DNA of 64,000 bases from a bacterium (GTDB lineage: Bacteria; Vulcanimicrobiota; Vulcanimicrobiia; Vulcanimicrobiales; Vulcanimicrobiaceae): NCBI GenBank assembly GCA_021832345.1, contig JAKBKY010000001.1, positions 458,385-522,384 of the forward strand, written 5' to 3'. The position numbers and the translations under genes were made by a program. Each line of letters starts with the position of its first letter. Position 1 is the stretch's first letter. Positions 27,845 to 57,373 of this stretch are shown here, piece after piece. The notes below the pieces were generated by a model. That model saw only the letters and a program-made list of their open reading frames with translations, searched no databases and had not been told where the DNA came from.

Positions 27845-29053
27845 TCAGTCTTTGAACGCCGGCAGAGCGTCGGCCATCTGTGCGAGCGCGTAGTCGATGT
27901 CATCCAGCGAAGCGGCATAGGAGAAGCGCAGATACCCGCTGCCGGCGGCGCCGAATGCCGAGCCGCCGAGGCATGCGATACCGGCCTCTCGCAGCAAGTA
28001 GGCCGCGAGCGCCTTGTCGTCGTGGGTGATCTTGGCGACGTTTGGGAACGCGTAGAAGGCGCCTTCGGGAATCGTGCAGCTAACGCGCGGCAAGCGGTTG
28101 AGGCCGGCGACGAGGCGATCGCGTCGCGCTCGAAACTTCTCGTTCATCGCGCGTACCGGTTCATCGGGGCCGCGCAGCGCGGCGATGCCGGCCATCTGCA
28201 CGAAGGTGGCGACGCAGCTAAACGTGTTGTTGTTAAAGAGCGTCACGACCTTGGCGAAGTGTTCCGGCATCAAAGCGTAGCCCAGGCGCCATCCGGTCAT
28301 CGCGTAGGCCTTTGAGAAGCCGTCGACGACGATGGTGCGCTCGCGCATCCCCGGAAGCGATGCCAGCGAAACGAAGGGCGTGTCGAGATAGAAGTTGCGG
28401 CTATAGATCTCGTCTGAAATCACCAGGAAGTCGTGCCGCACGGCTAGTTCTGCAATGCGCGCCAGGTCCGCCGGCTGCAGCACGCCGCCGGTCGGGTTGT
28501 GCGGGGAGTTGATCATCACGACCTTGGTGCGATCGCTCACGCGCTGCGCGAGTTCATCGAGGTCCATGCACCAGTTGCGCGACTCGCGTAGCGGAATCGG
28601 GACGATCTTGGCCTGCAGATAGCTTGCCGCCGAGGCATAGGCGGGATAGGCGGGATCGAAGTAGACGAACTCATCGCCTGGATTGAGCAGCGCCGAAAGG
28701 ATGTTCCAGATGATGGGCTTGGCTCCCGGCCCGACGACCACGTGTTCGGCTGCATACGGCGGGTCGAGCCGGCGCAGACGACTGGCGCACTCGGCGACGG
28801 TTGCGCGCAACTCGGCAAGACCGGCCGAGGGCGTGTAGTGCGTGGCATGTCCGCGCAGGGCGGCGATCGCCGCTTCGACGATGTGCTCGGGCGTGTCGAA
28901 GTCCGGCTCGCCGATCTCCATGTGGACCACGCGCTTGCCGGTGGCTTCGAGTGCCCTGGCGCGCGCCAGCACTTCAAAGGCGCTCTCGCTGCCCAAGCGC
29001 GAGACGGCGCTGGCGATACGATCTTCTGTAGCGGCGAACATCTGTTGTGTCAT
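27845..29053 (-). CDS. Class I/II pyridoxal-phosphate aminotransferase (aspartate-type)
   Basis: A 402-residue fold-type-I aminotransferase: MEIGEPDFDTPEHIVEAA, HYTPSAGLAELR, the INSPHNPTGGVL substrate/PLP loop, the Schiff-base lysine in VVDGFSKAYAMTGWRLGYAL, and the C-terminal substrate-binding Arg in GYLRFSYA. Probably aspartate or a related amino-acid transaminase; the precise substrate cannot be read. Divergent from the beta-repeat gene at 29125. Confidence 0.9.
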   Translation of the reverse strand: MTQQMFAATEDRIASAVSRLGSESAFEVLARARALEATGKRVVHMEIGEPDFDTPEHIVEAAIAALRGHATHYTPSAGLAELRATVAECASRLRRLDPPYAAEHVVVGPGAKPIIWNILSALLNPGDEFVYFDPAYPAYASAASYLQAKIVPIPLRESRNWCMDLDELAQRVSDRTKVVMINSPHNPTGGVLQPADLARIAELAVRHDFLVISDEIYSRNFYLDTPFVSLASLPGMRERTIVVDGFSKAYAMTGWRLGYALMPEHFAKVVTLFNNNTFSCVATFVQMAGIAALRGPDEPVRAMNEKFRARRDRLVAGLNRLPRVSCTIPEGAFYAFPNVAKITHDDKALAAYLLREAGIACLGGSAFGAAGSGYLRFSYAASLDDIDYALAQMADALPAFKD

Positions 29054-29124: not shown

Positions 29125-32100
29125 ATGCGCACCCTGACCGACGTCTTCGCGCCAGGATCGCCGACCTTACCGGAAGGGCTCCGAACGCTTGTGGTTTCGC
29201 CCGAGCGGGAACTCGAACCTGGGATGACGGTACGAGCGGCCTTTACGTTTGCCAACCACGGCGGCGCGCCCGCAACCGGGGTGCGGGTCCGGTTCAATAT
29301 CCCCGACGGCCTGGTCTACCTCGTCGGTTCCGGAACCTTCGAGGGAGAGCTCCTCGACGATGAGCAGGGGAACTCGCCGCTGCTTGCCCGCGGCGGTGCT
29401 GCGATCGGTGACGTTGCGCCCGGGCAAGAGCGGCGCATCGAGATTGCCTACAGCGTTGCCGGGGCGATCGAGAACGGTTCGACCATCGAGTTGCAAGCAG
29501 CCGTAGCCTCCTTCGAAGTGCCGCCGGTCGGCTCGAACGTGGTGCGCTTGGTGGCGCGCAGCAAACCGCAGTTGCGTAACGCGATGACCTCGATTGCGGT
29601 CGAGGCGCGGCCGGAGCCGGTGCCGGGCGGCGAGGCGCAGATCACCGTGCGCGTCCACAATGCAGGCGAATCGAGCGCTCACGACGTGGTTGTGGTGGCG
29701 CCCATCCCCGCGCATACGTCTTACGTGGCGAACTCGGCACGGGTCAACGGTCGCGAACTCGAACGCGACCTCGGCACCTCCTTCGACTACGCCTATGCGC
29801 CGACGATTGCGCCCACGCTGGCAGCCAGCGCTACCGTGACGCTGGTCTACCGGGTGCGTGTGGACGGCGCCCTCGACGACGGTACGGAGATCGTCGCCAC
29901 CGCTCGCGTCGCCTCCCAGGAAACCCCCGCCTTCGATCTTGCGGCGGGATCGCTGAACGTCGTCTCCGAGCCGGATTTTTCGACCGATGCGACCTCCTTT
30001 GAGATCGAACCGGCCCACGGCGTGCGCCCCGGCGAACGCGTGGCGTTCCACCTGGTTGCGCGTAACACCGGTACCTCGGCGGCCGCGCGTTTGACCGCGA
30101 GCCTCGAACTGCCCGATGCGTTGCTCTTCGTGCGTGGGGCCACGCGGATCGACGGCCGGCCGGTGCGCGAACGAAAGAAGGAGGTGACGACCTTCGACCT
30201 CGGGCGCATCGGCGTGGACGAAAGCGTTGAGCTGCACGGCGAAGCGGTGATCGCGACGCCGTTGCCCGACGGACAGGATCTCCCCGTCGTGCTCGCGCTG
30301 GCCTGGGAACCGCAACGCTGCGCAGGGGCCGGCGGACGCCGTTTCGAGCGAACGGTCACGGTGCATTCTGAGCCGCGGCTCGTTGCGCGTCGCAATGCGA
30401 TCGCGCGCTGCGGCCCGGCCGTCGTGCGGCCCGCCGATGAGATTGAAGCGACGATCCTGCTGGCGAACGACGGAAGCGCTGCGGTCACCGATGCCGTGCT
30501 GCGTGTACGCGTGGACGCAGGACTCGAAGAGGTGCGCGTCTTTGAGCGCAGCACGCGCGTGCCGTTCGATGCCGACGTTGCCGACCTTGGCGTGATCGAG
30601 CCCGCTGCGCAACGGCAGTTCTCGTTGCGCGCACGGGTGCGGACACCGTATGCCGATCGTGCAGAGGTGCGCATCGGGGCGAGTCTGCACAGTCGCGAGC
30701 TGGGCGAAACCTCTCTGGGTGAAGCGAACTGGCGCATCGATTCGCATCCTGCCTTTTCCGCGCAGAACTCGCGCTTGGAGCTTGCCGGCGACGCCGTCCT
30801 ACGCCCCAATCAGCTCGCCGACGTCTACGTGCGCCTCACCAATGTCGGCAGCGATGTCGCGCACAACGTGCGGCTGCGGCTCTACGTGTCGCCTGAAGCG
30901 CGGCTCGAGAGCGTCGACGGAGCGACGCGCGAGCGCTCGATGATCGCCTTCGGCGAGATCGCCCCCGGCGGCTCGGTCGAGGCGCGCTTGGGGCTGCGCT
31001 TGTTGCGCGGGCTGGCCAAGGCCCATCCGGTGACGGTGGACGCGGTACTCTCGGCCGACGCGATGCTGCCGATTCCGCTCGATGGGTTGGTCATCGCGAC
31101 CACCGCCGAACCGGACTTTTCGGTGGCCACGCTGCACGCGCAGCCCGCCGACGTCGTCGACGCCGGTGAGACCATCGAGTGGACGCTCTATCTGCGCAAT
31201 GGCGGCGACGGCCCCGCGCGTCGCGTCGCGGTGCGTGCGGCGCAACCCGACGCGTTGATCTACGTGCCGAACAGCACCACGATTAACGACATCCCGGTCC
31301 GCGATGTCGGAGCGCTCTCAAGCTTGGCCTGCGAACGGGGCATCGTGCTCAACGACGTCGACCCCGGCGTTGAGGTCACCCTACGGTTTCGCGACGTGGT
31401 GCATAACGGGCTCTCGGCCGGCGAAACGATCGCGCGGACGGTCACCATGAGCTACGACGGGCAACACGAGGATGTCGTCATCTCCGATGAACTCAAGGTG
31501 CGAGCGGTCCCCGCCTTTGCCAATGCGATCCCCGGGCTGCCCTTCGGCGTGGACGGGATGCTCGGGCCGTCGCTTGCCGACGGGCGGCGGGCGCTTTCGG
31601 CGGAGCGCTTCATCGAGTTGCCGCAGGCCACTCCGGTGGGCGGCGATGCTCTGACGTTGGCGAGCGGCATCATGCGTCGCCTGCCCGCGCCTGACGCGGC
31701 GTACGAGATATCGGCTGCGCTCATGCCCGATACCCTGCGCGGGCGCACGGTGGGGATGGTCGTCGGATTCGACCAGGATCGCTTGAAGCGCACCCTGCGT
31801 TTCCTCGACGAGGCATCGTTTGGTGGATTGGTGAGCCATCTCTTTGCGCTTCGCGCCATGCTGCCCGATGCGATCGGCGATACGCCGAGCGGGTCGCTCA
31901 GTTCGTTGCGCGAGACCCTCAAAGAGACGCTGGATCGCCTCTTCATCAAGCTGCGGCTGCCGAACTACGTGGTAGCACCGCGCGACGTCGAGACGCCGTC
32001 ATCGCGTGCCACCGTCGAACGCTTCCTGCTCGATGCCGCCTGCGCGCACGGCAGCCCCGCCGATCCGCCCGGCGCGGTGCGGGTCTTTACCGGCGGCTAT

Positions 32101-32361
32101 GATGCACAGCTCATCGAAGAGGGCGTACAACAACTCGGAGAGGCTCCACTGGCCACGGCTTGTCCGTGGATGGTCTTGGGTGCCTTGCTGCCGGACGGAG
32201 AGCCGGCCATGGTCGCCTACCGCCAGGCCTTTGCGGCGGCGTTCGGAGCGCTTGCCGATGCCGAGCCGACGGAGTTTCTCGACGCATTGCAACGCACTCA
32301 CGATCCGGCCCTGGACCTGGCTTTGCGCGGCGTTCGCCAGACACTCGCCGACAACGCATGA
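29125..32361 (+). CDS. Giant DUF11/CARDB-like beta-repeat protein, copy 1
   Basis: A 1,078-residue protein made of about seven beta-sandwich repeats of ~120 residues, each with an 'N-x-G-x-A' strand, a Y-V/F-V-x-x-(S/A)-(T/A) turn and a D-x-G-x-(I/V)-x-P-(G/A) turn (for example TYVANSARVNG; LIYVPNSTTIND), as in DUF11/CARDB modules. The last ~250 residues are a different, alpha-helical domain (FGGLVSHLFALRAMLPDAIG). There is no signal peptide or membrane anchor, unusual for DUF11 proteins. A paralogue follows at 32815. Starts MRTLTDVFAPG; coupled by ATGA overlap to the small membrane gene. Function unknown. Confidence 0.7.
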   Translation: MRTLTDVFAPGSPTLPEGLRTLVVSPERELEPGMTVRAAFTFANHGGAPATGVRVRFNIPDGLVYLVGSGTFEGELLDDEQGNSPLLARGGAAIGDVAPGQERRIEIAYSVAGAIENGSTIELQAAVASFEVPPVGSNVVRLVARSKPQLRNAMTSIAVEARPEPVPGGEAQITVRVHNAGESSAHDVVVVAPIPAHTSYVANSARVNGRELERDLGTSFDYAYAPTIAPTLAASATVTLVYRVRVDGALDDGTEIVATARVASQETPAFDLAAGSLNVVSEPDFSTDATSFEIEPAHGVRPGERVAFHLVARNTGTSAAARLTASLELPDALLFVRGATRIDGRPVRERKKEVTTFDLGRIGVDESVELHGEAVIATPLPDGQDLPVVLALAWEPQRCAGAGGRRFERTVTVHSEPRLVARRNAIARCGPAVVRPADEIEATILLANDGSAAVTDAVLRVRVDAGLEEVRVFERSTRVPFDADVADLGVIEPAAQRQFSLRARVRTPYADRAEVRIGASLHSRELGETSLGEANWRIDSHPAFSAQNSRLELAGDAVLRPNQLADVYVRLTNVGSDVAHNVRLRLYVSPEARLESVDGATRERSMIAFGEIAPGGSVEARLGLRLLRGLAKAHPVTVDAVLSADAMLPIPLDGLVIATTAEPDFSVATLHAQPADVVDAGETIEWTLYLRNGGDGPARRVAVRAAQPDALIYVPNSTTINDIPVRDVGALSSLACERGIVLNDVDPGVEVTLRFRDVVHNGLSAGETIARTVTMSYDGQHEDVVISDELKVRAVPAFANAIPGLPFGVDGMLGPSLADGRRALSAERFIELPQATPVGGDALTLASGIMRRLPAPDAAYEISAALMPDTLRGRTVGMVVGFDQDRLKRTLRFLDEASFGGLVSHLFALRAMLPDAIGDTPSGSLSSLRETLKETLDRLFIKLRLPNYVVAPRDVETPSSRATVERFLLDAACAHGSPADPPGAVRVFTGGYDAQLIEEGVQQLGEAPLATACPWMVLGALLPDGEPAMVAYRQAFAAAFGALADAEPTEFLDALQRTHDPALDLALRGVRQTLADNA

Positions 32362-32768
32362 GCGCGCTCGCCCTGCTTCTGGTGGGCGTCATCGTCCTCG
32401 GCGGGCTGGTGGGCGTCTACGCTTGGCTTGCTCCACGCAGGCCGGAACCGGTTCCGGCGAGTCGCCCGGCGGGGCGTGGTGATGCGCTCGATGAGTCGCC
32501 GGCCTGGGACGACGAAGCGGCGAACGAGTTCGAGGCGCTGAGCGAGTCGGCTCGCTGTGACCTGATCTTTGCCGTCGCCATGCTTGACGATGCGCGATCG
32601 CAGTCGTTGCTCAAACACGCGCTCGCCGATCCTTCGGAGGTGGTGGCCTTGGCTGCGGCCCGAGGTCTACGCAGCCTCGGTCAGGACGAAGCCCTCCTCG
32701 CCTATGCCCAGGCCCATCCCGGCGTTCGTGCGCAGCGGCTCCTCGCGACGCTTGCGCTCATGGAGTGA
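32358..32768 (+). CDS. Small membrane-anchored HEAT-like protein, copy 1
   Basis: A 136-residue protein. It has an N-terminal transmembrane helix (residues 3-23), a Pro/Arg linker, an acidic stretch (DDEAANEFEALSESARCDL), then two or three short helices reminiscent of HEAT repeats (LLKHALADPSEVVALAAARG). Its ATG overlaps the stop of the giant repeat gene, so stoichiometric production and interaction are likely. A diverged counterpart follows copy 2. Confidence 0.6.
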   Translation: MSALALLLVGVIVLGGLVGVYAWLAPRRPEPVPASRPAGRGDALDESPAWDDEAANEFEALSESARCDLIFAVAMLDDARSQSLLKHALADPSEVVALAAARGLRSLGQDEALLAYAQAHPGVRAQRLLATLALME

Positions 32769-32814
32769 GCGCGCTGCGTAGGGCGTCCCGTTGCAGAGGC
32801 GGAAAGAAGGGGTC

Positions 32815-35800
32815 GTGTCTACGACGTCGTTGACGGGCATCTTCGCGCCCGGTGTTCCTGCGCTGGTCGAGAGCCTGCGCACGCTGCGGATCGAGCCGAT
32901 GACGTCGGTCGGTCCCGGCGAGACCATCCGGGCGACCTTCGCCTTCTCCAACGTGGGCGGTGCGAGCGCAACGGGAGTGCGAGCGCGTTTCTCCTTACCC
33001 CAAGGCGTCACTCATATCGCCGAAGCCGATACTGCGGACGAACGACCCCTCGACGCACAGGAGCGGCTCGTCGATCCCAGCGGCGCGTCGATCGGCGATG
33101 TCGAGCCGGGTGTGACGCGACATGTCGTCTGTTCGTTCCGCGTTGACGATACGATCGAGGACGGGACCAGCTTGGTCTTTCAGGCCGCCTTGGCGGCCAA
33201 CGAGATGTCCATCGTCGCTACCAACGCCGAGCGCATCGTCGTTCGCAGCCGCCCGCTGCTCGAACACGTTTCCACGCTCGTGACGCTTGTGGCGCCGATG
33301 CAGCCGAAACCAGGCGATATCGTCGGAATCCGCGCGACCATCGTCAACCAGGGTTCATCGAGTGCGCACGATGTGATTCTACGGATGCCGGTGCCCGATC
33401 ACACCTCATACGTCGCGCGCAGCGCGCGCGTTGCCGGGCGATTGCTCGTCGATCTTGAGGGGGAGCCCTTCGACTACGATGGCGATGCGATCGTCGCGCA
33501 GCAGCTAGCGCCGGGCCAGAGCGTCCTCGTCGAATACGATACGACCATCGATGCTCCGCTGCGCGACGGGACGCGGATTCGGGCCGGCGGCAGCGTTGCC
33601 TCGCGTGAATGCGCCCAGTTTCCGCTTGAATCAGCGGAGATCGTCGTCCATTCGCCGGTCGACTTTGAGGGCGAGGAGACGGCGCTACGGGTCTTTAGCG
33701 ACGACATTGTGACCCCGGGGATGCGCGTCCCGATCGCCTTGCGCGCCACCAACGTCGGGACCGGCGCTGCCGACGGTGTCTCCGTGGCGTTTACGCTGCC
33801 GAGCGGCTTGGTCTACGCGCCGGGATCTGCGCACGTCGACGGGCAGCCGGTGGCAGATGAGGGTGTGCGCTCGCTGACGTTCTCGCTCGGCATGCTCGCG
33901 GCAGGGCGTAGCGCGGAGGTCGGCTTCGCTGCGACCGTCGCGGTTCCCGAGCCGAGCGCTCAGCCGCAAGCGCCGATTACCGCGTCGTTACGCTGGAGAT
34001 CGGGCGAGGGGTTCGGGCAGCGCGAGTTCGCGCGACGGATCGGCATTCGCGTCTCGCCGCGCTTTCATCGCGCACGAAACTACGTTGAGGCCGATCGCGG
34101 CACGGTCCGGGCGCAAGAAGACGTCCGTTTCGTGGTGCATGTCTACAATGACGGTACTGCTCCCGAACACGATGTGACGCTACGGGCGATCCCCGGGGTC
34201 TTTCTGAGCGATCTGCGGATCGCGGAATCACCCGAAGAGCCGATCCCCTACGGCGTACCGATTGAGTTGGGCGTCGTACACCCCCATGCCGAGCGCATCT
34301 TTATCGTCCTCGCCCGTATCGCATCGCCGGTGCCGGATCGCTCGCATCTGACGCTCGGCGCGGTGCTCGAGCATCCGGGCGGCGCGGTCGATCTTGGAAC
34401 GGCGACGATCGTCGTGCGATCCTTTCCGCGCGTCGAGGCGCAGGATGTCGGCTGGGAGTTTGTCGGCGGAGAGCCGCTGCGGCCGCAGCGCACCGCCGAG
34501 GTCCTGATCCGTATTCCGAACACCGGTTCCGACGTACTGCACGATGCGCGCCTCACGCTCACCGTGCCGCCGGAGCTTGCGGTCGAGCGCGCCGTAAATG
34601 CACGGCGCGAACGCGACGCGTTATTGCTGGGCGATATTCCCTCGGGGACGACGCACGAGGCTCGGTTCGCCCTGCGTCTCTTGCGTGCACCCAAACGCGG
34701 AACGACTTTGGCGCTCGAGGGGCGGCTTGGGGGGCGCGGCATCAGTCCGCTAGCGCTCGTCCCGCTCCAGATCCCGACCTTCGCCAAGCCCGAGTTTGTC
34801 GCCGGCTCTGCCTTCCATGTCGCGCCTGCGCAAGAAGTCAACGCCGGGGAGCGCGTCTTCTACGAGCTGCGCATTCGCAACGACGGCGACGGTGCGGCGG
34901 AGCGCCTGACGGTGCGCGTCGTTCCAACCAATCTCGCCGTCTACGTGCCGGGAAGCACGACCATCAACGGGATGTTGCTGGGCGATGAGGGCGGGGGCTC
35001 ACCGCTCTGGTCGCACGTAGGTTTGGTGCTGGCCGATGTGACGCCGGGCATCGACGTGCGCATTCGCTGGGAGGCGGCCGTCCTCTCTCCGCTCGAATCC
35101 GGAACGCAGCTCGAAACGCGAGCCGTGCTCGAATGGGACGATCAGGAGACGCTGGCGCTCGCCGCACCGATCTTGCGTGTCGCGGCGGTTCCGTCGCTTG
35201 GAGAGACGAGCGCCGGGACGCCGCTCTCCATCGAGCGCATCTTTCCGAGCCCGCCGGCACCCTACCAAGACCCGGATGCGTTCGACGAACCGAGCGCAGT
35301 GCTACCGCCGGCGAGCGTGCCGCTCGCAAGCCCCGCGCAGGTGCAGCCGCCTCGGGCGATCACCGAAGTCATTGCACGCAGCGGCGCCGTACTCGAAGCG
35401 TCGCTCCCGCCGCGCATCGCGTCGGCGCTACCGCTCGAACAGACGAACTCCGCCGTGGCATACGTGGATTTCACCGCCGAGCGGCTCGTGCACTCGATCA
35501 AGATGCTCGAACGTGCCGATGCCGGTGGGCTCATCGCGCATATCTTTGCGCTACGGACGCTCTTCCCGGAGGCCGCTGTAGGCGCAAGCCCGCGGGTGGA
35601 GCGCGCCTTCGGCGTAGCCGCTCGTGCCGCACGCGCACCGCTCGAGCGCTTCTTCGTTCGTCTCCGTCTGCCGCGGATCGCGGTAACCGGCAAAGATTTA
35701 GAGGATCGCGAGAGCCGCTCGGCGCTGCGCGAGTTGCTGGCGGAGCTCTTGGCGACCCCGCCGCACGGGGATGCGGGCGTGCCGGCCGGTGTCGTGCGCG

Positions 35801-36111
35801 TGCGAGGAGAGTTGGATCTGGACGCACTGCGTGCGCTTGCCGCCGAGCTCGACGGCGCTCCGCTCGGTGCGGTCGCCCCGTGGCTGGTCAACGCGCAACT
35901 GCTTGGGAGCGCGATCTTGCATGATGGGTCCCGCTCCGACGTACTGGGCCACTACCGCAGCGAGATGTTGCGTGTCTTTGCGGTCCTCTCGGAGCTGCCG
36001 ATGGAAGAGTTTCACCGCGTCTTGGGTTCGAGCGTGAATCGAACTCTGGACGAAGCGCTGGCGGCGGTGCTTGAAGCATTGCGCGCTGCGGCACGTCTGC
36101 CCGTCGATTAA
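32815..36111 (+). CDS. Giant DUF11/CARDB-like beta-repeat protein, copy 2
   Basis: A 1,098-residue paralogue of the preceding giant protein. It shares the start (TSLTGIFAPGVPALVESLRT vs TLTDVFAPGSPTLPEGLRTL), the repeat turns (TSYVARSARVAG; AVYVPGSTTINGM) and the C-terminal helical domain (AGGLIAHIFALRTLFPEAAV). Copy 2 has an added Pro-rich linker around residues 820-860. No signal peptide. GTG start four bases after AGAAGG. The two copies have diverged well beyond recent duplication. Function unknown; a scaffold or adhesion role is only a guess. Confidence 0.7.
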   Translation: MSTTSLTGIFAPGVPALVESLRTLRIEPMTSVGPGETIRATFAFSNVGGASATGVRARFSLPQGVTHIAEADTADERPLDAQERLVDPSGASIGDVEPGVTRHVVCSFRVDDTIEDGTSLVFQAALAANEMSIVATNAERIVVRSRPLLEHVSTLVTLVAPMQPKPGDIVGIRATIVNQGSSSAHDVILRMPVPDHTSYVARSARVAGRLLVDLEGEPFDYDGDAIVAQQLAPGQSVLVEYDTTIDAPLRDGTRIRAGGSVASRECAQFPLESAEIVVHSPVDFEGEETALRVFSDDIVTPGMRVPIALRATNVGTGAADGVSVAFTLPSGLVYAPGSAHVDGQPVADEGVRSLTFSLGMLAAGRSAEVGFAATVAVPEPSAQPQAPITASLRWRSGEGFGQREFARRIGIRVSPRFHRARNYVEADRGTVRAQEDVRFVVHVYNDGTAPEHDVTLRAIPGVFLSDLRIAESPEEPIPYGVPIELGVVHPHAERIFIVLARIASPVPDRSHLTLGAVLEHPGGAVDLGTATIVVRSFPRVEAQDVGWEFVGGEPLRPQRTAEVLIRIPNTGSDVLHDARLTLTVPPELAVERAVNARRERDALLLGDIPSGTTHEARFALRLLRAPKRGTTLALEGRLGGRGISPLALVPLQIPTFAKPEFVAGSAFHVAPAQEVNAGERVFYELRIRNDGDGAAERLTVRVVPTNLAVYVPGSTTINGMLLGDEGGGSPLWSHVGLVLADVTPGIDVRIRWEAAVLSPLESGTQLETRAVLEWDDQETLALAAPILRVAAVPSLGETSAGTPLSIERIFPSPPAPYQDPDAFDEPSAVLPPASVPLASPAQVQPPRAITEVIARSGAVLEASLPPRIASALPLEQTNSAVAYVDFTAERLVHSIKMLERADAGGLIAHIFALRTLFPEAAVGASPRVERAFGVAARAARAPLERFFVRLRLPRIAVTGKDLEDRESRSALRELLAELLATPPHGDAGVPAGVVRVRGELDLDALRALAAELDGAPLGAVAPWLVNAQLLGSAILHDGSRSDVLGHYRSEMLRVFAVLSELPMEEFHRVLGSSVNRTLDEALAAVLEALRAAARLPVD

Positions 36112-36118
36112 TCGCGCG

Positions 36119-36427
36119 TTGCTTGCGCTGGCGGTCGTCTTCGTTGTAGGAGCCCTGCTCTACGGTATCGGACTCGCTCTCTCGCGCGTTCCCGGGCCGC
36201 CGCCGTCGGTTGGGTGGACCTCGCTTATCACCGGAGACGATCGGCAGTACGATCGCGCTGCTCGCCTCGAGATGCTCGATCGCCTCCTGCTCATCGGTGC
36301 CCCCTGGTGCGTCCCCATTGCCCGCAGCGCGCTTACAGAGGAGCGTGACGAAGCGCTACGGAGTCTCGCGCTGCGGATCTGCGAGTCGGCGCAAGAGGTT
36401 ACGGTTTCAAGCGGAAGTAGCGAATGA
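36119..36427 (+). CDS. Small membrane-anchored HEAT-like protein, copy 2
   Basis: About 102 residues: an N-terminal hydrophobic helix (ALAVVFVVGALLYGIGLAL), then a helical region (YDRAARLEMLDRLLLI, then SALTEERDEALRSLALRI) like the counterpart at 32358. The start is uncertain: TTG 36119 follows the giant gene's stop; TTG 36071 would overlap it. The 3' end overlaps the convergent mrdA by 29 bases. It completes the second copy of the two-gene module. Confidence 0.5.
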   Translation: MLALAVVFVVGALLYGIGLALSRVPGPPPSVGWTSLITGDDRQYDRAARLEMLDRLLLIGAPWCVPIARSALTEERDEALRSLALRICESAQEVTVSSGSSE

Positions 36428-38264
36428 GGATGCGCCGCGCTATCGGTGCGGCGACGTTTGCGCCGTACCCTTCGCTCTTCTCCACATAGACGGCCATGGC
36501 GAGTTGCGGATGCTTTAGCGGTGCGAAGCAGACAAACCAGGTCGTGTTCGGGCCGTTGCCGCCCTCGGTTTGAACCGTTCCGGTCTTCCCGCCGTACGGA
36601 AAGCCGGGAATGCCCATCCCGTAGGCGGTGCCGATCGGCGACGTCACCTGTGCCATCCCGGCTCGCACCGTGGCAAAGGCCGTTTGGGAGCCCGGGACGC
36701 GGCGAATGACGTGCGGTGGGAAGCGTTTGATGATGTGTCCACCGGGGCTGCGAATCTCCGAGACGATGCGCGGGCGAAAGAGGGTGCCGCCGTTGACGAC
36801 GACGCTGACGACATTGGCCATCTGCACCGGCGTGGCTTGCATCGCGCCTTGGCCGATGCCGAGGCTGCAGACATCGCTTGGATAGAGCGGTTCGCCGAGA
36901 TTCTTGATCATCCAGGCGTTCGTCGGCCAGTTGCCCGGATACTCACCGGGCAGATCGATGCCGGTCCTTTGCGCGAGCCCAAAACGCAGCGCCCACCGCC
37001 GCATTCGCTTATTCCCTAGGCGATAGGCAACCTGGTAGAAGTAGCCGTCCGATGAGGCCGCCAGCGCCGGCACGAAGGTCGTATTCCCGAGGCCGGCGGC
37101 GACGATGTCTCGGAAGATGGCGCCGTGGCAGTTCCACTCCCCGCTATCGTAGATGATCTCGTTGGGACCGATCAGCCCGTCGGTGATCGCGCCCGTGCCG
37201 GGAATGAGCTTGAAGACGGAGCCGGTGGGAGTCGCTGCGGCGATCGCTTGGTCGAAGAGCGGACGCGTCGGATCGGTAAGATAGCGCTCAAACGTCTTGG
37301 TGCTGATCCCGTTGGCAAACTTATTTGGGTTGAAGTTCGGATAACTGGCCAGCGCCAGGATGGCGCCGTTCCACGGATCCTCGATCACCACGGCGCCTGC
37401 GAGCTTGCGTCCGACGGCTCGTTCTTGGCCGGCGATGCCGGCGGCCAAGGCGTGCTCAGCGATCACCTGAAGGCGCCAATCGATGTTGAGGATTAAGCTA
37501 TCTCCCGGGACCGCGCGCTTGGGCGGCAGGCGATCGCCCGGAACGACTTGCCCCGCGGCGTCGACGACGATGCGCTGTCCGCCGGGCTTGCCGCGCAAGT
37601 ACCGGTCGTACTCGGCTTCAAGGCCGTCCTTGCCGATGACGTCGTTTGGCGAGTAGCCTTGCCCCTTCAAGCGTTCGTACTCACGCTCGGTGATTGCACC
37701 GACGTACCCGAAGAGGTGCGAACCGAGCTTCCCGTACGGATACTCGCGCACGGGCTGAACTTCAAGGTCGACGCCTGAGAGGTCGTGTAAGCGTTCTGAG
37801 AGACGGGCGACCTGAGCGACCGTGAGGTTGCGCGCCAGGATCACGGGGCCGTAGGGCTCGTCGTCGGCGACTTGCGCGAAGTTCGTGTAGTTGATGCCTC
37901 GATGGTGGAGCAAGCGATGATAGAGCCGAGCTTGGGGCGCACCGATCATGCGCGCCAGCGTCGCCATCTCCGCGTGAATATGATGAATCTCGGATGGAAT
38001 CAGCGCCACGACGAACGAAGGGCGATTACGCACCAAGACCTTGCCGCGTCGATCGTAGATGAGGCCACGGGGTGCCGCTACGCGGATGACGCGGATCTGA
38101 TTGGCTTGTGCCTGCGCTCGGTACGCTGCGCCGTGGACGAGTTCGACGCGAGCGAGTTTCGCGGTCAGCACGACAAACACGCAGGCAATCGCGAGCGAGA
38201 AGAGCACGATGCGCCAGATCGGCCGCTCGATCGGTCGGCGTTCCAGTCGTCGCCCGGCGTTCAT
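36399..38264 (-). CDS. mrdA: Penicillin-binding protein 2 (elongasome transpeptidase)
   Basis: A 621-residue class-B PBP: N-terminal transmembrane helix, the RGLIYDRRGKVLVRN dimerisation start, then the transpeptidase with SxxK in TPTGSVFKLIPG, the SxD motif in SSDGYFYQVAY and KTG in GGKTGTVQTE. PBP2 crosslinks peptidoglycan during rod elongation and works with MreC/MreD, encoded directly upstream. ATG at 38264 overlaps the mreD stop (ATGA). rodA is not in the window. Confidence 0.92.
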   Translation of the reverse strand: MNAGRRLERRPIERPIWRIVLFSLAIACVFVVLTAKLARVELVHGAAYRAQAQANQIRVIRVAAPRGLIYDRRGKVLVRNRPSFVVALIPSEIHHIHAEMATLARMIGAPQARLYHRLLHHRGINYTNFAQVADDEPYGPVILARNLTVAQVARLSERLHDLSGVDLEVQPVREYPYGKLGSHLFGYVGAITEREYERLKGQGYSPNDVIGKDGLEAEYDRYLRGKPGGQRIVVDAAGQVVPGDRLPPKRAVPGDSLILNIDWRLQVIAEHALAAGIAGQERAVGRKLAGAVVIEDPWNGAILALASYPNFNPNKFANGISTKTFERYLTDPTRPLFDQAIAAATPTGSVFKLIPGTGAITDGLIGPNEIIYDSGEWNCHGAIFRDIVAAGLGNTTFVPALAASSDGYFYQVAYRLGNKRMRRWALRFGLAQRTGIDLPGEYPGNWPTNAWMIKNLGEPLYPSDVCSLGIGQGAMQATPVQMANVVSVVVNGGTLFRPRIVSEIRSPGGHIIKRFPPHVIRRVPGSQTAFATVRAGMAQVTSPIGTAYGMGIPGFPYGGKTGTVQTEGGNGPNTTWFVCFAPLKHPQLAMAVYVEKSEGYGANVAAPIARRILIRYFRLKP

Positions 38265-38761
38265 GAGAGTCGCGTACGCTCCCAGTGGCGGGCGAGTAGG
38301 ACGAGGACGATCGCGAGGGCTGCGTCGTAGAGCGATTGGATGATCGATTGATGCAGGTGGCGTGTTCCCATACCTGAGGGGTAGCCTTCGAAGAGTTCCA
38401 CGATCCAGTAGATGCCGTCGCGTACGAAAGTGCCGAAGGCCGCGACGAAGGCCATGAGCGGAATCGAGTCGGCGAAGAAGTTCCGGGAGAGCGTACCGGC
38501 TAGTGCCGCTACGGTGGCCGTCGCAAGCGCCCATCCGCCGCCGCCGCCCGAGAGCGCATCTTCGATCATGCCGACGACGAAGCCGAAGAGGACCGCTCGA
38601 CCGACATCTACGCGCAGCGCATACCACATAACGGCCAGCAACGTGAAGCTGGGGACGGTGTCGCGAATCGCGATGTACGGCGCCAGCGCAACCTGGAGGA
38701 TGACGCTTGCGAGCAGCCACGTCGCGGCAACCCACCATGAGGGGTACGCCGCGTGACCCAT
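38261..38761 (-). CDS. mreD: Rod shape-determining protein MreD
   Basis: A 166-residue membrane protein with five to six hydrophobic helices. The FGFVVGMIEDAL segment in the middle is the conserved G-x-x-x-G-x-x-x-D region of MreD. It links MreC and PBP2 in the elongasome. ATG 38761 is seven bases after the mreC stop; the gene overlaps mrdA by four bases. Identity rests on hydrophobicity, size and position between mreC and mrdA. Confidence 0.82.
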   Translation of the reverse strand: MGHAAYPSWWVAATWLLASVILQVALAPYIAIRDTVPSFTLLAVMWYALRVDVGRAVLFGFVVGMIEDALSGGGGGWALATATVAALAGTLSRNFFADSIPLMAFVAAFGTFVRDGIYWIVELFEGYPSGMGTRHLHQSIIQSLYDAALAIVLVLLARHWERTRLS

Positions 38762-38768
38762 GCGCACG

Positions 38769-39575
38769 TTACTTCGTAACGACAAGGACGCGGTCGAGTG
38801 CGCTCAGTCGAGCGCTCGGGCGGAGAATGGCCGTTTGATAGAGACTGGCGTCGCTGCGTTCGATCTTCACGATGCGGCCGATGACATCACCGGCATGGAA
38901 CGAGCGTCCCTTGCCGGTGACGACCGTTTGTCCGATCCGCAAGTGCGCATCCTGCGAGACGTAGTCGAGATGGAGACTCGTGAGGTTGCCGCGGACGATT
39001 CCCCACCAGCGTCCACGCCGCACGATGGCCGGGATACGCGAGGTGTAGTCGGTGATCAGCGTGACGGTGCTGGTGAATGGGCCGGCACTGGTAATGCGCC
39101 CCACCACGCCGTAAGCATCGAGTACGCCGTCTTCTCTGCGGATGCCGGAGCGCGATCCTTGATCGATCGTCATGGTGCGGTTCTGCCCTTCCGGAGGGAA
39201 GCCGATGACGCGTGCTTGGATCGTATGGGGATGCGTTGCGGTGAGCGGAAGCAAACCTGCGCGAGCATCCTCTTCTGCAAGACGCTGACGCAGCGCGGCA
39301 TTTGCGCTCGCTAGATGTTCGTTGCGTGCCCGTAAGACCGCGTTCGTGTGGGCGAGGGACGGCAGGTCCAGGACCGAGTTGATCGCATCGCGCACGGCGA
39401 GGCTGCCCGCACCTGCGGTGGATTGAACGCCCGCAACGAGCGTCGACGTGATCGCTCCCACGGGGCCGAGCGAACCGGTGCGAGCCGCTACAATCTGAGC
39501 CAGTACGATGGCGGCAGCGACGATGATCAGGCCGATCAGGGCAACGAGCTTGCGTTCGTCTCGGTAGGTGAAGAT
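38769..39575 (-). CDS. mreC: Cell shape-determining protein MreC
   Basis: About 268 residues: a short basic N-terminus and transmembrane helix (KLVALIGLIIVAAAIVLAQI), a coiled coil (LRARNEHLASANAALRQRLA), then the beta-barrel domains with GVVGRI and VTGKGRSF. MreC organises PBP2 in the periplasm. The N-terminus including the membrane helix is in frame but contains no ATG, GTG or TTG before the GTG at 39461; the maf stop TAG (39588-39590) precedes it in the same frame. ATC 39575 or ACG 39578, six to nine bases after AGAGG, are the start candidates. Without this helix the protein would be unanchored. Confidence 0.88.
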   Translation of the reverse strand: MFTYRDERKLVALIGLIIVAAAIVLAQIVAARTGSLGPVGAITSTLVAGVQSTAGAGSLAVRDAINSVLDLPSLAHTNAVLRARNEHLASANAALRQRLAEEDARAGLLPLTATHPHTIQARVIGFPPEGQNRTMTIDQGSRSGIRREDGVLDAYGVVGRITSAGPFTSTVTLITDYTSRIPAIVRRGRWWGIVRGNLTSLHLDYVSQDAHLRIGQTVVTGKGRSFHAGDVIGRIVKIERSDASLYQTAILRPSARLSALDRVLVVTK

Positions 39576-51842: not shown

Positions 51843-52985
51843 ATGGATGTTGTGAGGATAGCGTATGAGAAGGGGCGAAAACCTGTGGATGTGACCGAAA
51901 GGCCCAGCCTACATCTGGCTGATCTCTTCGCGGGAGCCGGCGGCATCACCGACGGCTTCCGTCAGGCCGGGTTCACACCCGTGGCTGCCGTTGAATTCGA
52001 CCGATGGGCTGCGGAAACGTACACTGCGAACTTCGGGGGCCATGTGCTGGCCTGCCCCATTGAAGAGGTGAGGGTCTCCCGCAAGGACGGTGCTCTCGTC
52101 TGGAGCGGTCGAGATGTAAGCGGCACACCGAGGACCTTTGAAACGCCCGAGATCGACGTTCTCGTAGGCGGCCCGCCTTGCCAAGGGTTCTCACCTCTGG
52201 GCCGGATGAACGATTGGGGCTACAGCGATCCGCGCAACCAGCTCTGGAAGCACTACGTGCGTATTTTGGACATGCTTCAGCCCCAGGTCTTCGTCATCGA
52301 AAATGTGCCGGAGATTTTGAAATCCGAAGAGTTTGAGCGCTTGACGCGCCACGTAAGGCGCCTTGGGCACGGTTACGAGCTAGCATTTGGTATCCTGAAC
52401 GCATCGTTCTACGGTGTTCCTCAAAATCGCAAGCGGGCGATTATCATTGGGAGTCGGGTCGGCAAGCCAACGTTGCCCCCGGAGACACTCGAACGCATGA
52501 CTGTGCGTGATGCAATTGGGGACCTTCCGCTAAAACCCGACGGCAAAAATTGGCATATCGGTCGAAATCCTTTGCCAAGCTCTCTTGAACGCTATAAATG
52601 CGTTCCTGAAGGCGGGAATCGGTTTGACCTGATGAGGAAGCGCCCGGATATTACGCCAAAGTGTTGGTTAAGAAAGACGACGGGAAGTACCGATGTCTTC
52701 GGCCGCATGTGGTGGGATGAGCCATCACCAACGATTCGCACGGAGTTTTTCAAACCGGAGAAGGGACGCTATCTTCATCCGAAGGCACATCGACCGATAA
52801 CCATTCGCGAAGCGGCCCGCCTGCAAACGTTTTCTGATGCGTTTGTTTTCGTTGGGTCGAACGTGCAGGTGGCCAAGCAAATCGGCAATGCTGTTCCAGT
52901 GAACCTGGCAAGAGCTATTGCGGTTCACCTAACCGCTACCGTTTTCGCTGCAGGCGAAAGCATATCGCATTCAGTCGCAGTCTAA
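51843..52985 (+). CDS. dcm: DNA (cytosine-5) methyltransferase
   Basis: A 380-residue C5 methyltransferase. Motif I LADLFAGAGGITDGFRQAGF (25-44), motif IV VGGPPCQGFSPLG with catalytic Cys113, ENVPE (VI), QNRKRAIIIG (VIII), and the C-terminal IREAARLQTF...QIGNAVPVNLA (IX-X). It probably protects the host against the NgoMIV-like enzyme encoded downstream. Less biased codons than purH indicate transfer. The symbol dcm is generic; the recognised sequence is not known. Confidence 0.92.
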   Translation: MDVVRIAYEKGRKPVDVTERPSLHLADLFAGAGGITDGFRQAGFTPVAAVEFDRWAAETYTANFGGHVLACPIEEVRVSRKDGALVWSGRDVSGTPRTFETPEIDVLVGGPPCQGFSPLGRMNDWGYSDPRNQLWKHYVRILDMLQPQVFVIENVPEILKSEEFERLTRHVRRLGHGYELAFGILNASFYGVPQNRKRAIIIGSRVGKPTLPPETLERMTVRDAIGDLPLKPDGKNWHIGRNPLPSSLERYKCVPEGGNRFDLMRKRPDITPKCWLRKTTGSTDVFGRMWWDEPSPTIRTEFFKPEKGRYLHPKAHRPITIREAARLQTFSDAFVFVGSNVQVAKQIGNAVPVNLARAIAVHLTATVFAAGESISHSVAV

Positions 52986-52988
52986 TAA

Positions 52989-53570
52989 ATGGACGACCAG
53001 AAGAAAACCTCTCGGAAGAGGCGGGGAACGCTCGCAAGGGCCGAAGCCTACTTCATCGCGCACGTCGGCGAGATTCTGGAGAATAAGACGCTTAGGGACG
53101 CTGTTGGCGGAACGTCAGATTCGTGGACTCGGCGCGTCCGTGAACTGCGCGAGAAGTTGGGCTACAAGATTCGGACTCACCTCGACCGACCGGACCTCAA
53201 GCCCGGTCAGTATATGCTTGAGGATTTGCATCGTGTTCCGGTCGTCGCTCGCTCCATTAACAAGAAGCTTCGGGCATTCATCCTTGAGCGCAATGGCTAC
53301 ACCTGCGGAAGTTGCGGCATCGGTGCCGGTGATGTCCACGAGGACGGGCGCCCAGCTCGTTTGCAGATCGGGCATGTTATCGATGCATCGCACGGCGGCA
53401 CGAGCGACCCAAGCAATCTTCGCGCACTCTGCTCACTATGCAATGAAGGGTCGAGCAACATAAGCCCGGCTCGCCAAAGCCAAAGTCAGCTCCTTGCAGC
53501 GTTGCGACGCGCAAAGCCCGACGACCAGCAAGTCGCCTTCGAATGGCTAAAGAAAAAACTCGGAAAGTAG
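52989..53570 (+). CDS. HNH endonuclease
   Basis: A 193-residue protein: the N-terminal half is basic and helical (DNA-binding-like, FIAHVGEILENKTLRDAVGG), the C-terminal half an HNH domain: ILERNGYTCGSCG, LQIGHVIDASHGGTSDPSNL, RALCSLCNEGSS, with two CxxC zinc pairs and the H...N core. It begins three bases after the methyltransferase, and overlaps vsr. It may be an accessory or alternative nuclease of this restriction-modification cassette. Confidence 0.85.
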   Translation: MDDQKKTSRKRRGTLARAEAYFIAHVGEILENKTLRDAVGGTSDSWTRRVRELREKLGYKIRTHLDRPDLKPGQYMLEDLHRVPVVARSINKKLRAFILERNGYTCGSCGIGAGDVHEDGRPARLQIGHVIDASHGGTSDPSNLRALCSLCNEGSSNISPARQSQSQLLAALRRAKPDDQQVAFEWLKKKLGK

Positions 53571-53968
53571 CTCTCTTAAAAAGCGCGCAGATGTCGCGCG
53601 TAAGGTCCCGTGATACCGGGCCGGAACTGCGCGTCCGCCGGTTGCTTTCAGATATGGGTGTTCGCTACCGCCTCCACCGGCGCGACCTTCCTGGGCGACC
53701 AGACCTCTACATCGGCCGCCTCCGACTTGCCATCTTCGTGAATGGGTGCTTTTGGCATGGGCACGACTGCCGTCGAGGAGGTCGATCCAAGACGAATGCC
53801 GATTTCTGGGAGCAGAAGATTGCCGGGAACCTCGCTCGGGATCGCCGCTCGGTGGACCGACTCAAGGAGCAGGGTGTTGAGATCGTGACGCTTTGGACTT
53901 GTGAGATCGCAGGGTTTCCTGCGGCCTGCCGCAATATCGCCCGTCGCTATACAAGGGCATCCCAATGA
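53543..53968 (+). CDS. vsr: Very-short-patch repair (Vsr) endonuclease
   Basis: A 141-residue Vsr-type mismatch endonuclease: MSRVRSRDTGPELRVRRLL, GVRYRLHRRDLPGRPDLYIG, then RLAIFVNGCFWHGHDC with the catalytic Asp and His cluster, and FWEQKIAGNLARDRRSVDRL. It nicks T:G mismatches arising from deamination of 5-methylcytosine, offsetting the mutagenic effect of the adjacent C5 methyltransferase. Overlaps the HNH and restriction genes. Confidence 0.93.
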   Translation: MAKEKTRKVALLKSAQMSRVRSRDTGPELRVRRLLSDMGVRYRLHRRDLPGRPDLYIGRLRLAIFVNGCFWHGHDCRRGGRSKTNADFWEQKIAGNLARDRRSVDRLKEQGVEIVTLWTCEIAGFPAACRNIARRYTRASQ

Positions 53969-54861
53969 ACGATATGCTGCCCCGACTTGCCGAAGCGCGC
54001 GCCGGGTTTCTGGCTCGTATCAAGAGTGAAATTCTTTGGGTTAAGCCTCTCGAAAAAATCAAGGCGTCCATCCGACGGAATCTGCCTTCCGGTATCGCAG
54101 GTCCTGTCAGTATCGCCGATGTCGACAACGCATCCTCCATCAAGATCGCTTGGGAGTGGGCAGCGCGATTGCCCGGCTCCTTCGCTGTTTCGGAACCTTC
54201 CCAGGACTCCGGCAAGCTCTTTCAGTTTACTGTTCGAGATTTTCTCCGGGTTGGATTCGAGCTTGGCGCTGTTCTGCGCCCCGGAGCTTGGCAATGGAGA
54301 ACGGAATATGGAGCCGCGCATTTCGATCAATACGCGCATTTAAACGATATTCGCGACGCGCTCGAAGAGAATAAGGAACTACGAACGGTTTTCTCCGAGC
54401 AATATCTTGTCGTCCCTGATATCGTGGTTTATCGAAGCGCGATTCGGGCGGCTGAAGTCGGCAGAAGTCCCGACGTTCGAATCGCAAACCTCTCTCCGCT
54501 ACTGGACGACGCGCAGTTCTCAAAAAATCATCCGTTGCTCCACGCAAGCGTATCGTGCAAGATCACTATGCGATCGGATCGAGCTCAAAATACGAGAACA
54601 GAGGCGCTCAATCTGATTCGAAATCGCAAAGGTCGGGCTCCGGCCATCGTCGCCGTAACGGCCGAGCCGTTGCCGACACGCCTGTCTTCGCTCGCGCTTG
54701 GCACGGGCGATGTGGACTTCGTTTATCATGCCGCACTACCTGAGCTGCGCGAATCCCTGACTACGACGGGTAACGAGGATCAGCTCGATATGCTCAACAC
54801 TCTCGTCGAAGGGCGACGAATCCGCGATATCGCAGATCTCGTTCTCGACCTGCTGATTTAG
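53965..54861 (+). CDS. NgoMIV-family type II restriction endonuclease
   Basis: A 298-residue protein resembling the NgoMIV/SgrAI/Cfr10I group. The catalytic signature is VVPDIVVYR (Asp152) and HASVSCKITMRSDRAQNTRT (Ser197-x-Lys199), then EALNLIRNRKGRAP and AVTAEPLPTRLSSLALGTGD followed by VDFVYH. Known family members cut sites centred on CCGG (NgoMIV: GCCGGC). It pairs with the C5 methyltransferase and Vsr upstream as one operon with overlapping genes. The exact recognition site cannot be read from the sequence. Confidence 0.85.
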   Translation: MNDMLPRLAEARAGFLARIKSEILWVKPLEKIKASIRRNLPSGIAGPVSIADVDNASSIKIAWEWAARLPGSFAVSEPSQDSGKLFQFTVRDFLRVGFELGAVLRPGAWQWRTEYGAAHFDQYAHLNDIRDALEENKELRTVFSEQYLVVPDIVVYRSAIRAAEVGRSPDVRIANLSPLLDDAQFSKNHPLLHASVSCKITMRSDRAQNTRTEALNLIRNRKGRAPAIVAVTAEPLPTRLSSLALGTGDVDFVYHAALPELRESLTTTGNEDQLDMLNTLVEGRRIRDIADLVLDLLI

Positions 54862-55015
54862 GGGCCGGGGATCATGCAAGTTAGCTACGAGGAGGCCTAC
54901 AGGACCTTCGCCGATGGCGGGACCTCGGACTCTGGGAAACATTCGCGGAATGGGAATCAAGATGCACGATGCGTCTCGAATCCGGACGGCGGCTGCACGT
55001 TGGAGGGGTGCTGAA

Positions 55016-56179
55016 ATGCCCAAGCCGCGTGTCTTCCTGGCATACCCGTTCAAATTTCCCGAAATCGAAGTCGCGGTTCGTGGAGCCGTTGCCGAGTTCG
55101 CCGATGTGATCGTCGCCAAGGATGAGGTACACGGATCGCACATTCTCGACAAGATATTGCGGCAGATGAACGAGTCCGACATCTGTCTCTTCGACCTGAC
55201 GGACAGCAACGTGAACGTCGTGCTCGAGTTGGGCATTGCGATCGGGCGAGCATCGGCATACTGCGTCCTTCGGAATGTTTCACCTGGGCATGAAACAGCT
55301 GATGCTGACTTCTTCTCCGACCTCAAGGGATGGGACCATCTCCGATACGCCGATACGAACGATCTGACCCAGAAACTTGGAGAGTACCTTCCGAAACAAC
55401 TTCGACGCGCTGCATCGGCGACAAAGGCGACACAGATGACCGTGCCGATAAGCACGTATGAGAGCGAGGCCGCTGAAACGCTCCGGGATGCCGCGAGCCG
55501 GAGTGGTTTCCTGATCCTTTCCTACGTCTGCTCAATGAGTCTAATCGTCCATCCGAGTTCGTACCTCGGCGATCGCTTCACCGAAGATCAGGAGCGCAAC
55601 GCCGTCGATTCCGCGCGGCAGAGAACCGGCGTCGGCTTTCCGATCACAGGACCGGAAAAGGCCGTTAACCTTGAGGATGGCTTCCAGGTGAGCACGGTTC
55701 TGCTACGGGACGGGAACAGACCGGAGTACCGGGAGTACTATCGTCTCCGACGCGATGGTCTGTTTGTGCTAACCCGCGTTTCACCCGACGACATCGGCGA
55801 CGACCGACAGTATCGTGACATGGACCGATTTATTGGCTTCGTCACGCTCGTCGCGACACTTACGAAGATGATGTTATTCGCGGCAGCTCTCGCGTGCGAA
55901 TACAACGACCAGACCACCGCATCGGTCAGGGTTTGCGGACTTGCTCATCACAAGTTGGTGGATGATTTGGCGGATCGTCCGCTGATTCTCGGAGATATTC
56001 AAGTCGCGTACCAGGACGTCGTTACGGCGGCGTTCAGCGGTAGTCCGGAGGAATTCGAGAAAGAGAAGAACGAGTGGGCGGTGGATGCCATCGCTAAGTG
56101 CTTGAGAGCGTTGAACTATCCCGCTGTAACCGACTCGATCAAAACCGTCGTGCGACAATACCAGAAGAGGGTATGCTGA
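55016..56179 (+). CDS. TIR/deoxyribosyltransferase-like defence protein
   Basis: A 387-residue protein. Residues 5-90 form a Rossmann-like domain of the TIR/nucleoside-deoxyribosyltransferase type: VFLAYPFKFPEIEVAVRGAV, SDICLFDLTDSNVNVVLELG (Asp60, putative catalytic Glu71). The C-terminal ~280 residues are a sensor-like region of unknown family. Such proteins often hydrolyse NAD or nucleotides during phage infection, which fits its place beside restriction genes. ATG 55016 follows GGAGGGG by seven bases; the upstream in-frame extension is ignored. Confidence 0.6.
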   Translation: MPKPRVFLAYPFKFPEIEVAVRGAVAEFADVIVAKDEVHGSHILDKILRQMNESDICLFDLTDSNVNVVLELGIAIGRASAYCVLRNVSPGHETADADFFSDLKGWDHLRYADTNDLTQKLGEYLPKQLRRAASATKATQMTVPISTYESEAAETLRDAASRSGFLILSYVCSMSLIVHPSSYLGDRFTEDQERNAVDSARQRTGVGFPITGPEKAVNLEDGFQVSTVLLRDGNRPEYREYYRLRRDGLFVLTRVSPDDIGDDRQYRDMDRFIGFVTLVATLTKMMLFAAALACEYNDQTTASVRVCGLAHHKLVDDLADRPLILGDIQVAYQDVVTAAFSGSPEEFEKEKNEWAVDAIAKCLRALNYPAVTDSIKTVVRQYQKRVC

Positions 56180-56216
56180 GGCGAACGGAACTTGCCCCCG
56201 AGGCGAGGAGATCGCA

Positions 56217-56315: not shown

Positions 56316-56336
56316 GTCCGAAATACGAGGGGTAGT

Positions 56337-57194: not shown

Positions 57195-57373
57195 GGCATG
57201 CTCAATCACATATCAACCGGCATCAGCGATTTTGGCGGTACGCCATGTGCCAAGTATACAACAAAGCGTTCGATTGGCCGATCAGTTCGGCGATTTGCGC
57301 TACAGACTTTAGGGCGCCTCGATGAATCCAGGTGCCGACATTTCCGTAGCATGCTCTACCGGAGGTTCAATTT

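What the first reader, a model, noticed from the sequence alone, without database searches (positions are those of the whole stretch)
29125..36427. Duplicated module: signal-less giant DUF11-like protein plus membrane HEAT-like partner
Two paralogous gene pairs lie in tandem; each giant protein has ~7 CARDB/DUF11-like beta-sandwiches and a shared C-terminal helical domain, and each is followed by a small protein with an N-terminal membrane helix. DUF11 proteins are normally secreted, yet neither giant has a signal peptide. The pair adjoins mrdA-mreD-mreC. A cytoplasmic scaffold tethered by the small protein is one idea.
Basis: partly seen in the sequence, partly recalled or inferred. Interest (0 to 1): 0.6.

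Follow-up and report, generated by a model that had tools for sequence, protein, structure and literature searches.

The report
Membrane-tethered intracellular Ig-domain scaffold, duplicated
Two neighbouring gene pairs, in a little-known phylum of soil and rock bacteria, each encode a large rod of immunoglobulin-like domains that appears to stay inside the cell and a small membrane protein that appears to hold it against the inner membrane, using a helical docking domain with no match in the databases searched; what the rod holds in place is not known.

Summary
Two paralogous giants (34% identical) lie in tandem at 29125-36427, each followed by a small protein with an N-terminal membrane helix. 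The host belongs to Vulcanimicrobiota (Ca. Eremiobacterota).

Corrections: giant 1 has six confident beta-sandwich domains, not about seven, then a disordered linker and a confident 200-aa helical domain (CTD) with no Pfam, NCBIfam or PDB match. The small proteins are paralogs only at profile level; each keeps a different half of a longer partner.

No signal peptide was found in 83 giants. A membrane-protein ORF follows 75 of 81 giant or CTD-only genes, against 19% of control genes. Natural rearrangements support tethering: TM-HEAT fused to the CTD of giant 2 (g25); giant 2 cut down to its CTD but keeping its partner (g19); an array with its own membrane helix and neither CTD nor partner (G028).

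The cell-shape link is not supported: the unit is convergent with mrdA, missing from relatives with an intact mre locus, and found elsewhere. A distant CTD+HEAT pair lies inside type IV pilus operons of six giant-less genomes, but giants also occur in two near-complete genomes without pilus platform genes.

Best reading: a membrane-docked cytoplasmic Ig-array scaffold; client unknown.

The parts
29125..32361 (+). giant 1 (1078 aa): six DUF11/Ig-like beta-sandwiches, disordered linker, helical C-terminal domain; no signal peptide
29188..31503 (+). array of six predicted beta-sandwich domains of giant 1 (aa 22-793)
   Evidence: AlphaFold2 secondary structure and pLDDT; DUF11 9e-31
31747..32355 (+). 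C-terminal domain (CTD) of giant 1 (aa 875-1077), no Pfam, NCBIfam or PDB match
   Evidence: pLDDT 93-97
32358..32768 (+). small 1 (136 aa): N-terminal membrane helix plus HEAT-like helices; ATG overlaps the stop of giant 1
   Evidence: positive-inside count
32815..36111 (+). giant 2 (1098 aa): paralog of giant 1, 34% identical
35437..36102 (+). CTD of giant 2 (aa 875-1096); this is the domain that is fused to TM-HEAT in genus g25
   Evidence: tree
36071..36427 (+). small 2 ORF (118 aa; probable real start GTG 36095): membrane helix plus short helical domain, overlaps the 3' end of mrdA by 29 bp
27845..29041 (-). aminotransferase class I/II, divergent neighbour, conserved left boundary of the cassette
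36399..38264 (-). mrdA/PBP2, convergent neighbour, conserved right boundary of the cassette
38261..39461 (-). mreD and mreC, not part of the module
   Evidence: mreC Pfam hit; mreD assigned by position and synteny

Best explanation
Each giant is a cytoplasmic rod of six Ig-like (DUF11) domains that is docked to the inner face of the cytoplasmic membrane. A flexible linker connects the rod to a helical C-terminal domain (CTD), and the CTD binds the HEAT-like domain of the small protein, whose single membrane helix (N-out, C-in) is the anchor. The two duplicated pairs probably work together: single-giant genomes have one long partner, and each small protein of the duplicated unit matches a different half of it. 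The rod presents binding surfaces for client proteins near the membrane, comparable in principle to intracellular Ig-array proteins of the ciliary central apparatus. Shown by computation: domain layout, conserved pairing, absence of signal peptides, predicted C-in topology, the fusions. Inferred: CTD-HEAT binding, cytoplasmic location, scaffold function. Unknown: the client; a type IV pilus or other envelope machine is the leading guess because a distant CTD+HEAT pair sits inside pilus operons of related genomes.
For: No N-terminal hydrophobic segment in 83 giants, and 62 of 65 distinct small partners have more K/R on the C side of the helix. Pairing 75 of 81 against 146 of 788 controls. Natural rearrangements: TM-HEAT-CTD fusion (387-400 aa) in g25, nested in the giant-2 clade with 99/95 support; giant 2 reduced to its CTD but still followed by small 2 in g19; a G028 copy with its own N-terminal membrane helix followed by R-rich sequence, and neither CTD nor small partner (only one CTD found in that genome, on another contig). 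AlphaFold2 gives confident domains for the fusion (pLDDT 88.5) and giant 1 (84.7). Foldseek of giant 1 ranks ciliary central apparatus chains first. Giant 1 is about as conserved as PBP2 (median 60% against 63%) and more than mreC and mreD (53%, 44%). Small 1 matches the C-terminal half and small 2 the N-terminal half of the long partner (E=1.9e-13 and 3.2e-15). A short version at the same locus (551 aa plus 85 aa, L073) keeps the layout.
Against: No experiment on localisation or binding. Topology rests on the positive-inside rule. Prediction of a giant-small complex could not be run; the fusion model has pTM 0.62, so the packing of HEAT against CTD is not established. HEAT matches of single sequences are below Pfam's cut-off. 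Most DUF11 proteins are surface proteins (own knowledge), and one DUF11 filament protein without a signal peptide is surface-exposed (PMC13319060). The module is missing from many relatives, even within genus g36, so it is not essential.
Confidence: 0.62

Rival explanations
1. Type IV pilus accessory: the CTD+HEAT dock is a cytoplasmic inner-membrane part of the pilus machine, and the giants are an elaborated version that positions or regulates pili, perhaps under c-di-GMP control.
For: In six giant-less genomes (L151-L156) a CTD protein and then a TM-HEAT protein lie between the secretin and a PilT/PilB-like ATPase, followed in most by a GGDEF gene, in operons with PilM, PilN, pilin and PilC. 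Both parts are homologous to the window's by profile (E=3.3e-17 and 4.2e-14). In G038 a DUF11-CTD giant adjoins an HD-GYP-like, a GGDEF and a secretin gene. The first cultured member of the phylum glides by type IV pili and has no flagella (PMC9758169).
Against: The pilus clusters of the window's genome (L185) and four other giant-bearing genomes inspected (L186, L187, L189, L196) hold no CTD. Giants occur in G004 and G032 (both 96% complete), where no pilus platform gene T2SSF was found, and in G020, where the one secretin found lies in a different, Tad-like cluster (L191). The pilus-linked copies form one clade (98/98), so this is one evolutionary event.
Confidence: 0.22
2. Surface or exported filament: the giants leave the cell by a route without signal peptide, like grappling-hook DUF11 filaments, and the small protein is an export or anchoring partner.
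For: DUF11 repeats are typical of surface proteins; GhlA of Litorilinea has 49 DUF11 domains, no signal peptide and an N-terminal membrane stretch, and forms filaments on the surface (PMC13319060).
Against: The giants have no N-terminal membrane stretch, six domains rather than dozens, a CTD that is fused in g25 behind a helix predicted C-in, and a partner predicted C-in in 62 of 65 cases.
Confidence: 0.1
3. Cell-shape factor acting with PBP2-MreD-MreC.
For: Located next to mrdA-mreD-mreC in most genera of the family.
Against: Convergent orientation; the same flanking order persists in giant-less and outgroup genomes, where the aminotransferase and PBP2 genes are adjacent or nearly so; the module sits at other sites without mre genes (L065-L068, L074, L097, L098); different phyletic range.
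Confidence: 0.06

Closest known systems
DUF11 (PF01345) repeat proteins, including grappling-hook protein GhlA
   Same: Tandem DUF11 Ig-like sandwiches, recognised by the Pfam model above cut-off
   Different: Here no signal peptide or N-terminal helix, six domains, a CTD and a regularly paired small membrane partner; predicted cytoplasmic
Intracellular Ig-like array proteins of the ciliary central apparatus (PDB 9ijj, 7som, 7sqc chains)
   Same: Best Foldseek matches for the array (E to 1e-25); cytoplasmic arrays of Ig-like domains used as scaffolds (own knowledge)
   Different: No sequence homology claimed (8-14% identity), TM-scores low (0.1-0.25); resemblance in principle, not membership
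HEAT repeat proteins (PF13646 HEAT_2)
   Same: Helical hairpins; 24 of 25 small-1 orthologs and 7 of 7 long partners hit HEAT_2; the fusion model shows paired helices
   Different: Few hairpins, below Pfam's cut-off in the sequences shown, behind an N-terminal membrane helix in nearly all cases (L076 has a coiled-coil-like stretch instead)
CTD and TM-HEAT proteins of the type IV pilus operons of six Vulcanimicrobiota genomes (L151-L156)
   Same: Homologous CTD and TM-HEAT pair in the same gene order
   Different: No six-domain DUF11 array; only short beta-like units at the N-terminus; encoded inside the pilus operon

Membership tests
DUF11 proteins (PF01345) | Pfam match above gathering score | tested here: met
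   107 and 77 bits against 24.6
DUF11 proteins (PF01345) | usually secreted: signal peptide | tested here: not met
   No hydrophobic N-terminus in 83 giants; conserved start MRTL..VFAPG. This is a common property, not a definition
HEAT repeats (PF13646) | Pfam match above gathering score | tested here: not met
   Small 1 18.2 bits, long partner L112 24.8 bits, cut-off 27.7; consistent sub-threshold hits in 24 of 25; called HEAT-like only
HEAT repeats (PF13646) | antiparallel helical hairpins | tested here: met
   Model of the g25 fusion: six helices between residues 58 and 141, most at high pLDDT; weak Foldseek hits are mainly HEAT/ARM-like repeat proteins. Helix packing was not inspected in coordinates
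Rod (MreBCD-PBP2) complex components | co-oriented with, or always present beside, mre/mrd genes | tested here: not met
   Convergent; absent from relatives with an intact mre locus; present elsewhere
Type IV pilus machinery | encoded in the pilus operon | tested here: not met
   Not in the window genome (L185); met only by distant homologs in L151-L156
Type IV pilus machinery | co-occurs with pilus genes | tested here: inconclusive
   Most genomes have secretin genes, but G004 and G032 carry giants and no T2SSF was found
Grappling-hook filaments | surface filament of dozens of DUF11 domains with N-terminal membrane stretch | tested here: not met
   Six domains, no N-terminal helix; surface display not testable here

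The most novel reading that the evidence does not exclude
Vulcanimicrobiota carry a new, reusable membrane-docking module (CTD plus TM-HEAT partner) that plugs different cargo onto the inner membrane: six-domain Ig arrays in most lineages, short beta units inside type IV pilus operons in others. The Ig-array version would be an intracellular bacterial scaffold built like the Ig-array proteins of cilia.
Probability: 0.35. Interest if true: 0.72.

Novelty: new variant of a known kind. Interest (0 to 1): 0.52.

Why it matters
Large intracellular Ig-array scaffolds are best known from eukaryotic cilia (own knowledge). This one is conserved about as well as PBP2 in its family, rests on a domain with no Pfam, NCBIfam or PDB match, and shows several natural rearrangements that make a tethering mechanism directly testable. 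One likely carrier of the module is in pure culture: G008, a single 3,508,363-bp contig, fits the 3.50-Mb genome of Vulcanimicrobium alpinus WC8-2 (inference from size).

Tried and rejected
Looked for an upstream start giving a signal peptide: none. Plasmid search with the CTD: no match; with the DUF11 part: one weak Paenibacillus hit. PDB sequence search with the CTD profile: nothing; Foldseek of the TM-HEAT-CTD model: nothing better than E=0.17. A search of another phylum failed because only genome handles can be a centre, so absence outside Vulcanimicrobiota is untested except for the close-relative scan of genome contigs. Papers on DUF11 in this phylum: none found in the held library. Proximity to flagellin or FliD genes in the f2 family (L063, L077) was judged coincidental and not followed.
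Full report
WHAT IS THERE. The window is part of a 2.34-Mb genome whose close relatives are Ca. Eremiobacterota/Vulcanimicrobiota MAGs. Four plus-strand genes form one compact unit: giant 1 (29125-32361), small 1 (32358-32768), giant 2 (32815-36111) and small 2 (ORF 36071-36427). Left of it lies a divergent aminotransferase, right of it the convergent mrdA-mreD-mreC genes. The giants are 34% identical over their whole length and hit DUF11 strongly. AlphaFold2 with 54 homologs gives giant 1 six beta-sandwich domains, a disordered linker at 795-872 and a confident helical C-terminal domain (CTD) at 875-1077.

THE CTD HAS NO MATCH. The CTD (alignment A6, 35 rows, conserved motif DRLFxKLRxP...DLE) has no convincing Pfam, NCBIfam or PDB sequence match. 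The best Foldseek match of the confident TM-HEAT-CTD fusion model has E=0.17, and the weak hits are mainly HEAT/ARM-like repeat proteins.

NO SIGNAL PEPTIDE. In 83 giants the most hydrophobic 15-residue window near the N-terminus (first 45 residues) has a median hydropathy of 0.49 and a maximum of 1.38. The N-terminus MRTLxxVFAPGxPxLPEGLRTL is conserved across genera, so the lack of a signal peptide is not an annotation error in one genome.

THE SMALL PARTNER IS CONSERVED AND PAIRED. Of 81 giant or CTD-only units with enough flank, 75 are followed within 100 bp by an ORF with an N-terminal membrane helix, against 146 of 788 other genes. In 62 of 65 distinct partners the K/R count is higher on the C side of the helix, which predicts N-out, C-in; the window's small 2 is one of the exceptions, because the 5'-most ORF start was used. 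Small 1 orthologs hit HEAT_2 weakly but consistently (24 of 25). The single-giant genomes of family f2, and the copies at the aminotransferase-PBP2 site in genus g9, have a 186-223-aa partner that hits HEAT_2 in 7 of 7. Small 1 aligns to the C-terminal half of that long partner (E=1.9e-13), small 2 to its membrane helix and N-terminal half (E=3.2e-15). The two smalls are therefore best read as paralogs with complementary truncation, which suggests the two pairs act together (inference).

NATURAL REARRANGEMENTS. (a) Genus g25: membrane helix, HEAT-like part and the CTD of giant 2 form one 387-400-aa protein directly behind giant 1; the array of giant 2 is gone. The tree places these CTDs inside the giant-2 clade (99/95). 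(b) Genus g19: giant 2 is reduced to a 196-217-aa CTD but is still followed by small 2. (c) G028: a paralog of 1053 aa starts with MDVPEVLLLVTLYVLVIAAVGTLIFFAARRPRPSRRG, carries the DUF11 array, and has neither CTD nor small partner; the only CTD found in that genome is on another contig. Where the array has its own membrane helix, the CTD and the partner are missing. (d) G005: a 551-aa short version plus an 85-aa membrane partner at the same site. These events are what a tether model predicts.

POSITION IS NOT FUNCTION. The cassette lies between the aminotransferase and PBP2 genes in most genera of the family. In 14 genomes chosen because they lacked a clear giant at this site, those two genes are adjacent or nearly so, the rest of the order (parA-parB-...-trpS; mreD-mreC) is largely kept, and no CTD was detected there; these include two outgroup genomes of family f3. 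The unit thus comes and goes as a whole, and mre genes do not need it. Copies at other sites sit beside a gene resembling cyclic-nucleotide-binding regulators in the tig-clpP-clpX-priA region (L065-L068, L157, L161, L162) or alone (L074, L097, L098, L108-L111).

TYPE IV PILUS LEAD. The CTD profile also finds, in six genomes without giants (G003, G014, G016, G017, G030, G103), a 300-440-aa protein encoded directly after the pilus secretin and directly before a TM-HEAT protein, a PilT/PilB-like ATPase and, in most, a GGDEF protein. Both parts are homologous to the window's at profile level (E=3.3e-17 and 4.2e-14). In G038 a DUF11-CTD giant adjoins HD-GYP-like, GGDEF and secretin genes. Against a general pilus role: the pilus cluster of the window's own genome (L185) lacks a CTD, two 96%-complete genomes with giants (G004, G032) have no T2SSF match, and the pilus-linked copies are a single clade (98/98). 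I therefore keep the pilus as the leading guess for a client, not as the conclusion.

ANALOGY. Foldseek of giant 1 ranks chains of the ciliary central apparatus first, followed by complement/A2M proteins and integrins. Overall TM-scores are low, as expected for flexible arrays; this supports a works-like comparison only.

RIVALS. Export is the main alternative: a 49-domain DUF11 protein without a signal peptide forms surface filaments in Litorilinea (PMC13319060). That protein has an N-terminal membrane stretch and far more domains; the giants have neither, and the CTD is fused in g25 behind a helix predicted to be C-in. A cell-shape role is disfavoured for the reasons above.

LIMITS. Everything here is computation. 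No complex prediction tool was available, topology rests on charge counts, my gene calls are simple ORF choices with codon scoring, and genomes are mostly MAGs, so absences carry some risk. Presence outside the phylum was tested only by a close-relative scan and by plasmid searches.

Noticed in passing
L151-L156 (e.g. L153:3079-13475): Type IV pilus operon carrying two parts without Pfam match (CTD protein and TM-HEAT protein) between secretin and PilT/PilB-like ATPase, plus a GGDEF gene in most; a possible new pilus accessory pair
   Followed up: partly
L065-L068, L162: A further copy of the module lies divergent from a 226-aa protein resembling cyclic-nucleotide-binding regulators, near priA, clpX and clpP
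   Followed up: partly
L160:6234-11298: 1110-aa DUF11-CTD giant next to HD-GYP-like and GGDEF genes and a secretin; c-di-GMP link possible
   Followed up: no
L076:1545-6055: 1045-aa CTD protein followed by a 450-aa HEAT-like protein with a long E/R/A-rich coiled-coil-like stretch instead of a membrane helix: possible non-membrane variant of the dock
   Followed up: no
window 52001-58000: G+C drops to 0.56 against about 0.65 around it, with sparse genes; possible recent insertion
   Followed up: no
window 36399-36427: Small 2 and mrdA overlap tail to tail by 29 bp
   Followed up: no
L145:5007-6641: Three tandem near-identical small ORFs with hydrophobic starts (MQRLRRAIFT..., CTGLGANIGSGSKGSDF) in an f3 genome between parB and trpS
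   Followed up: no
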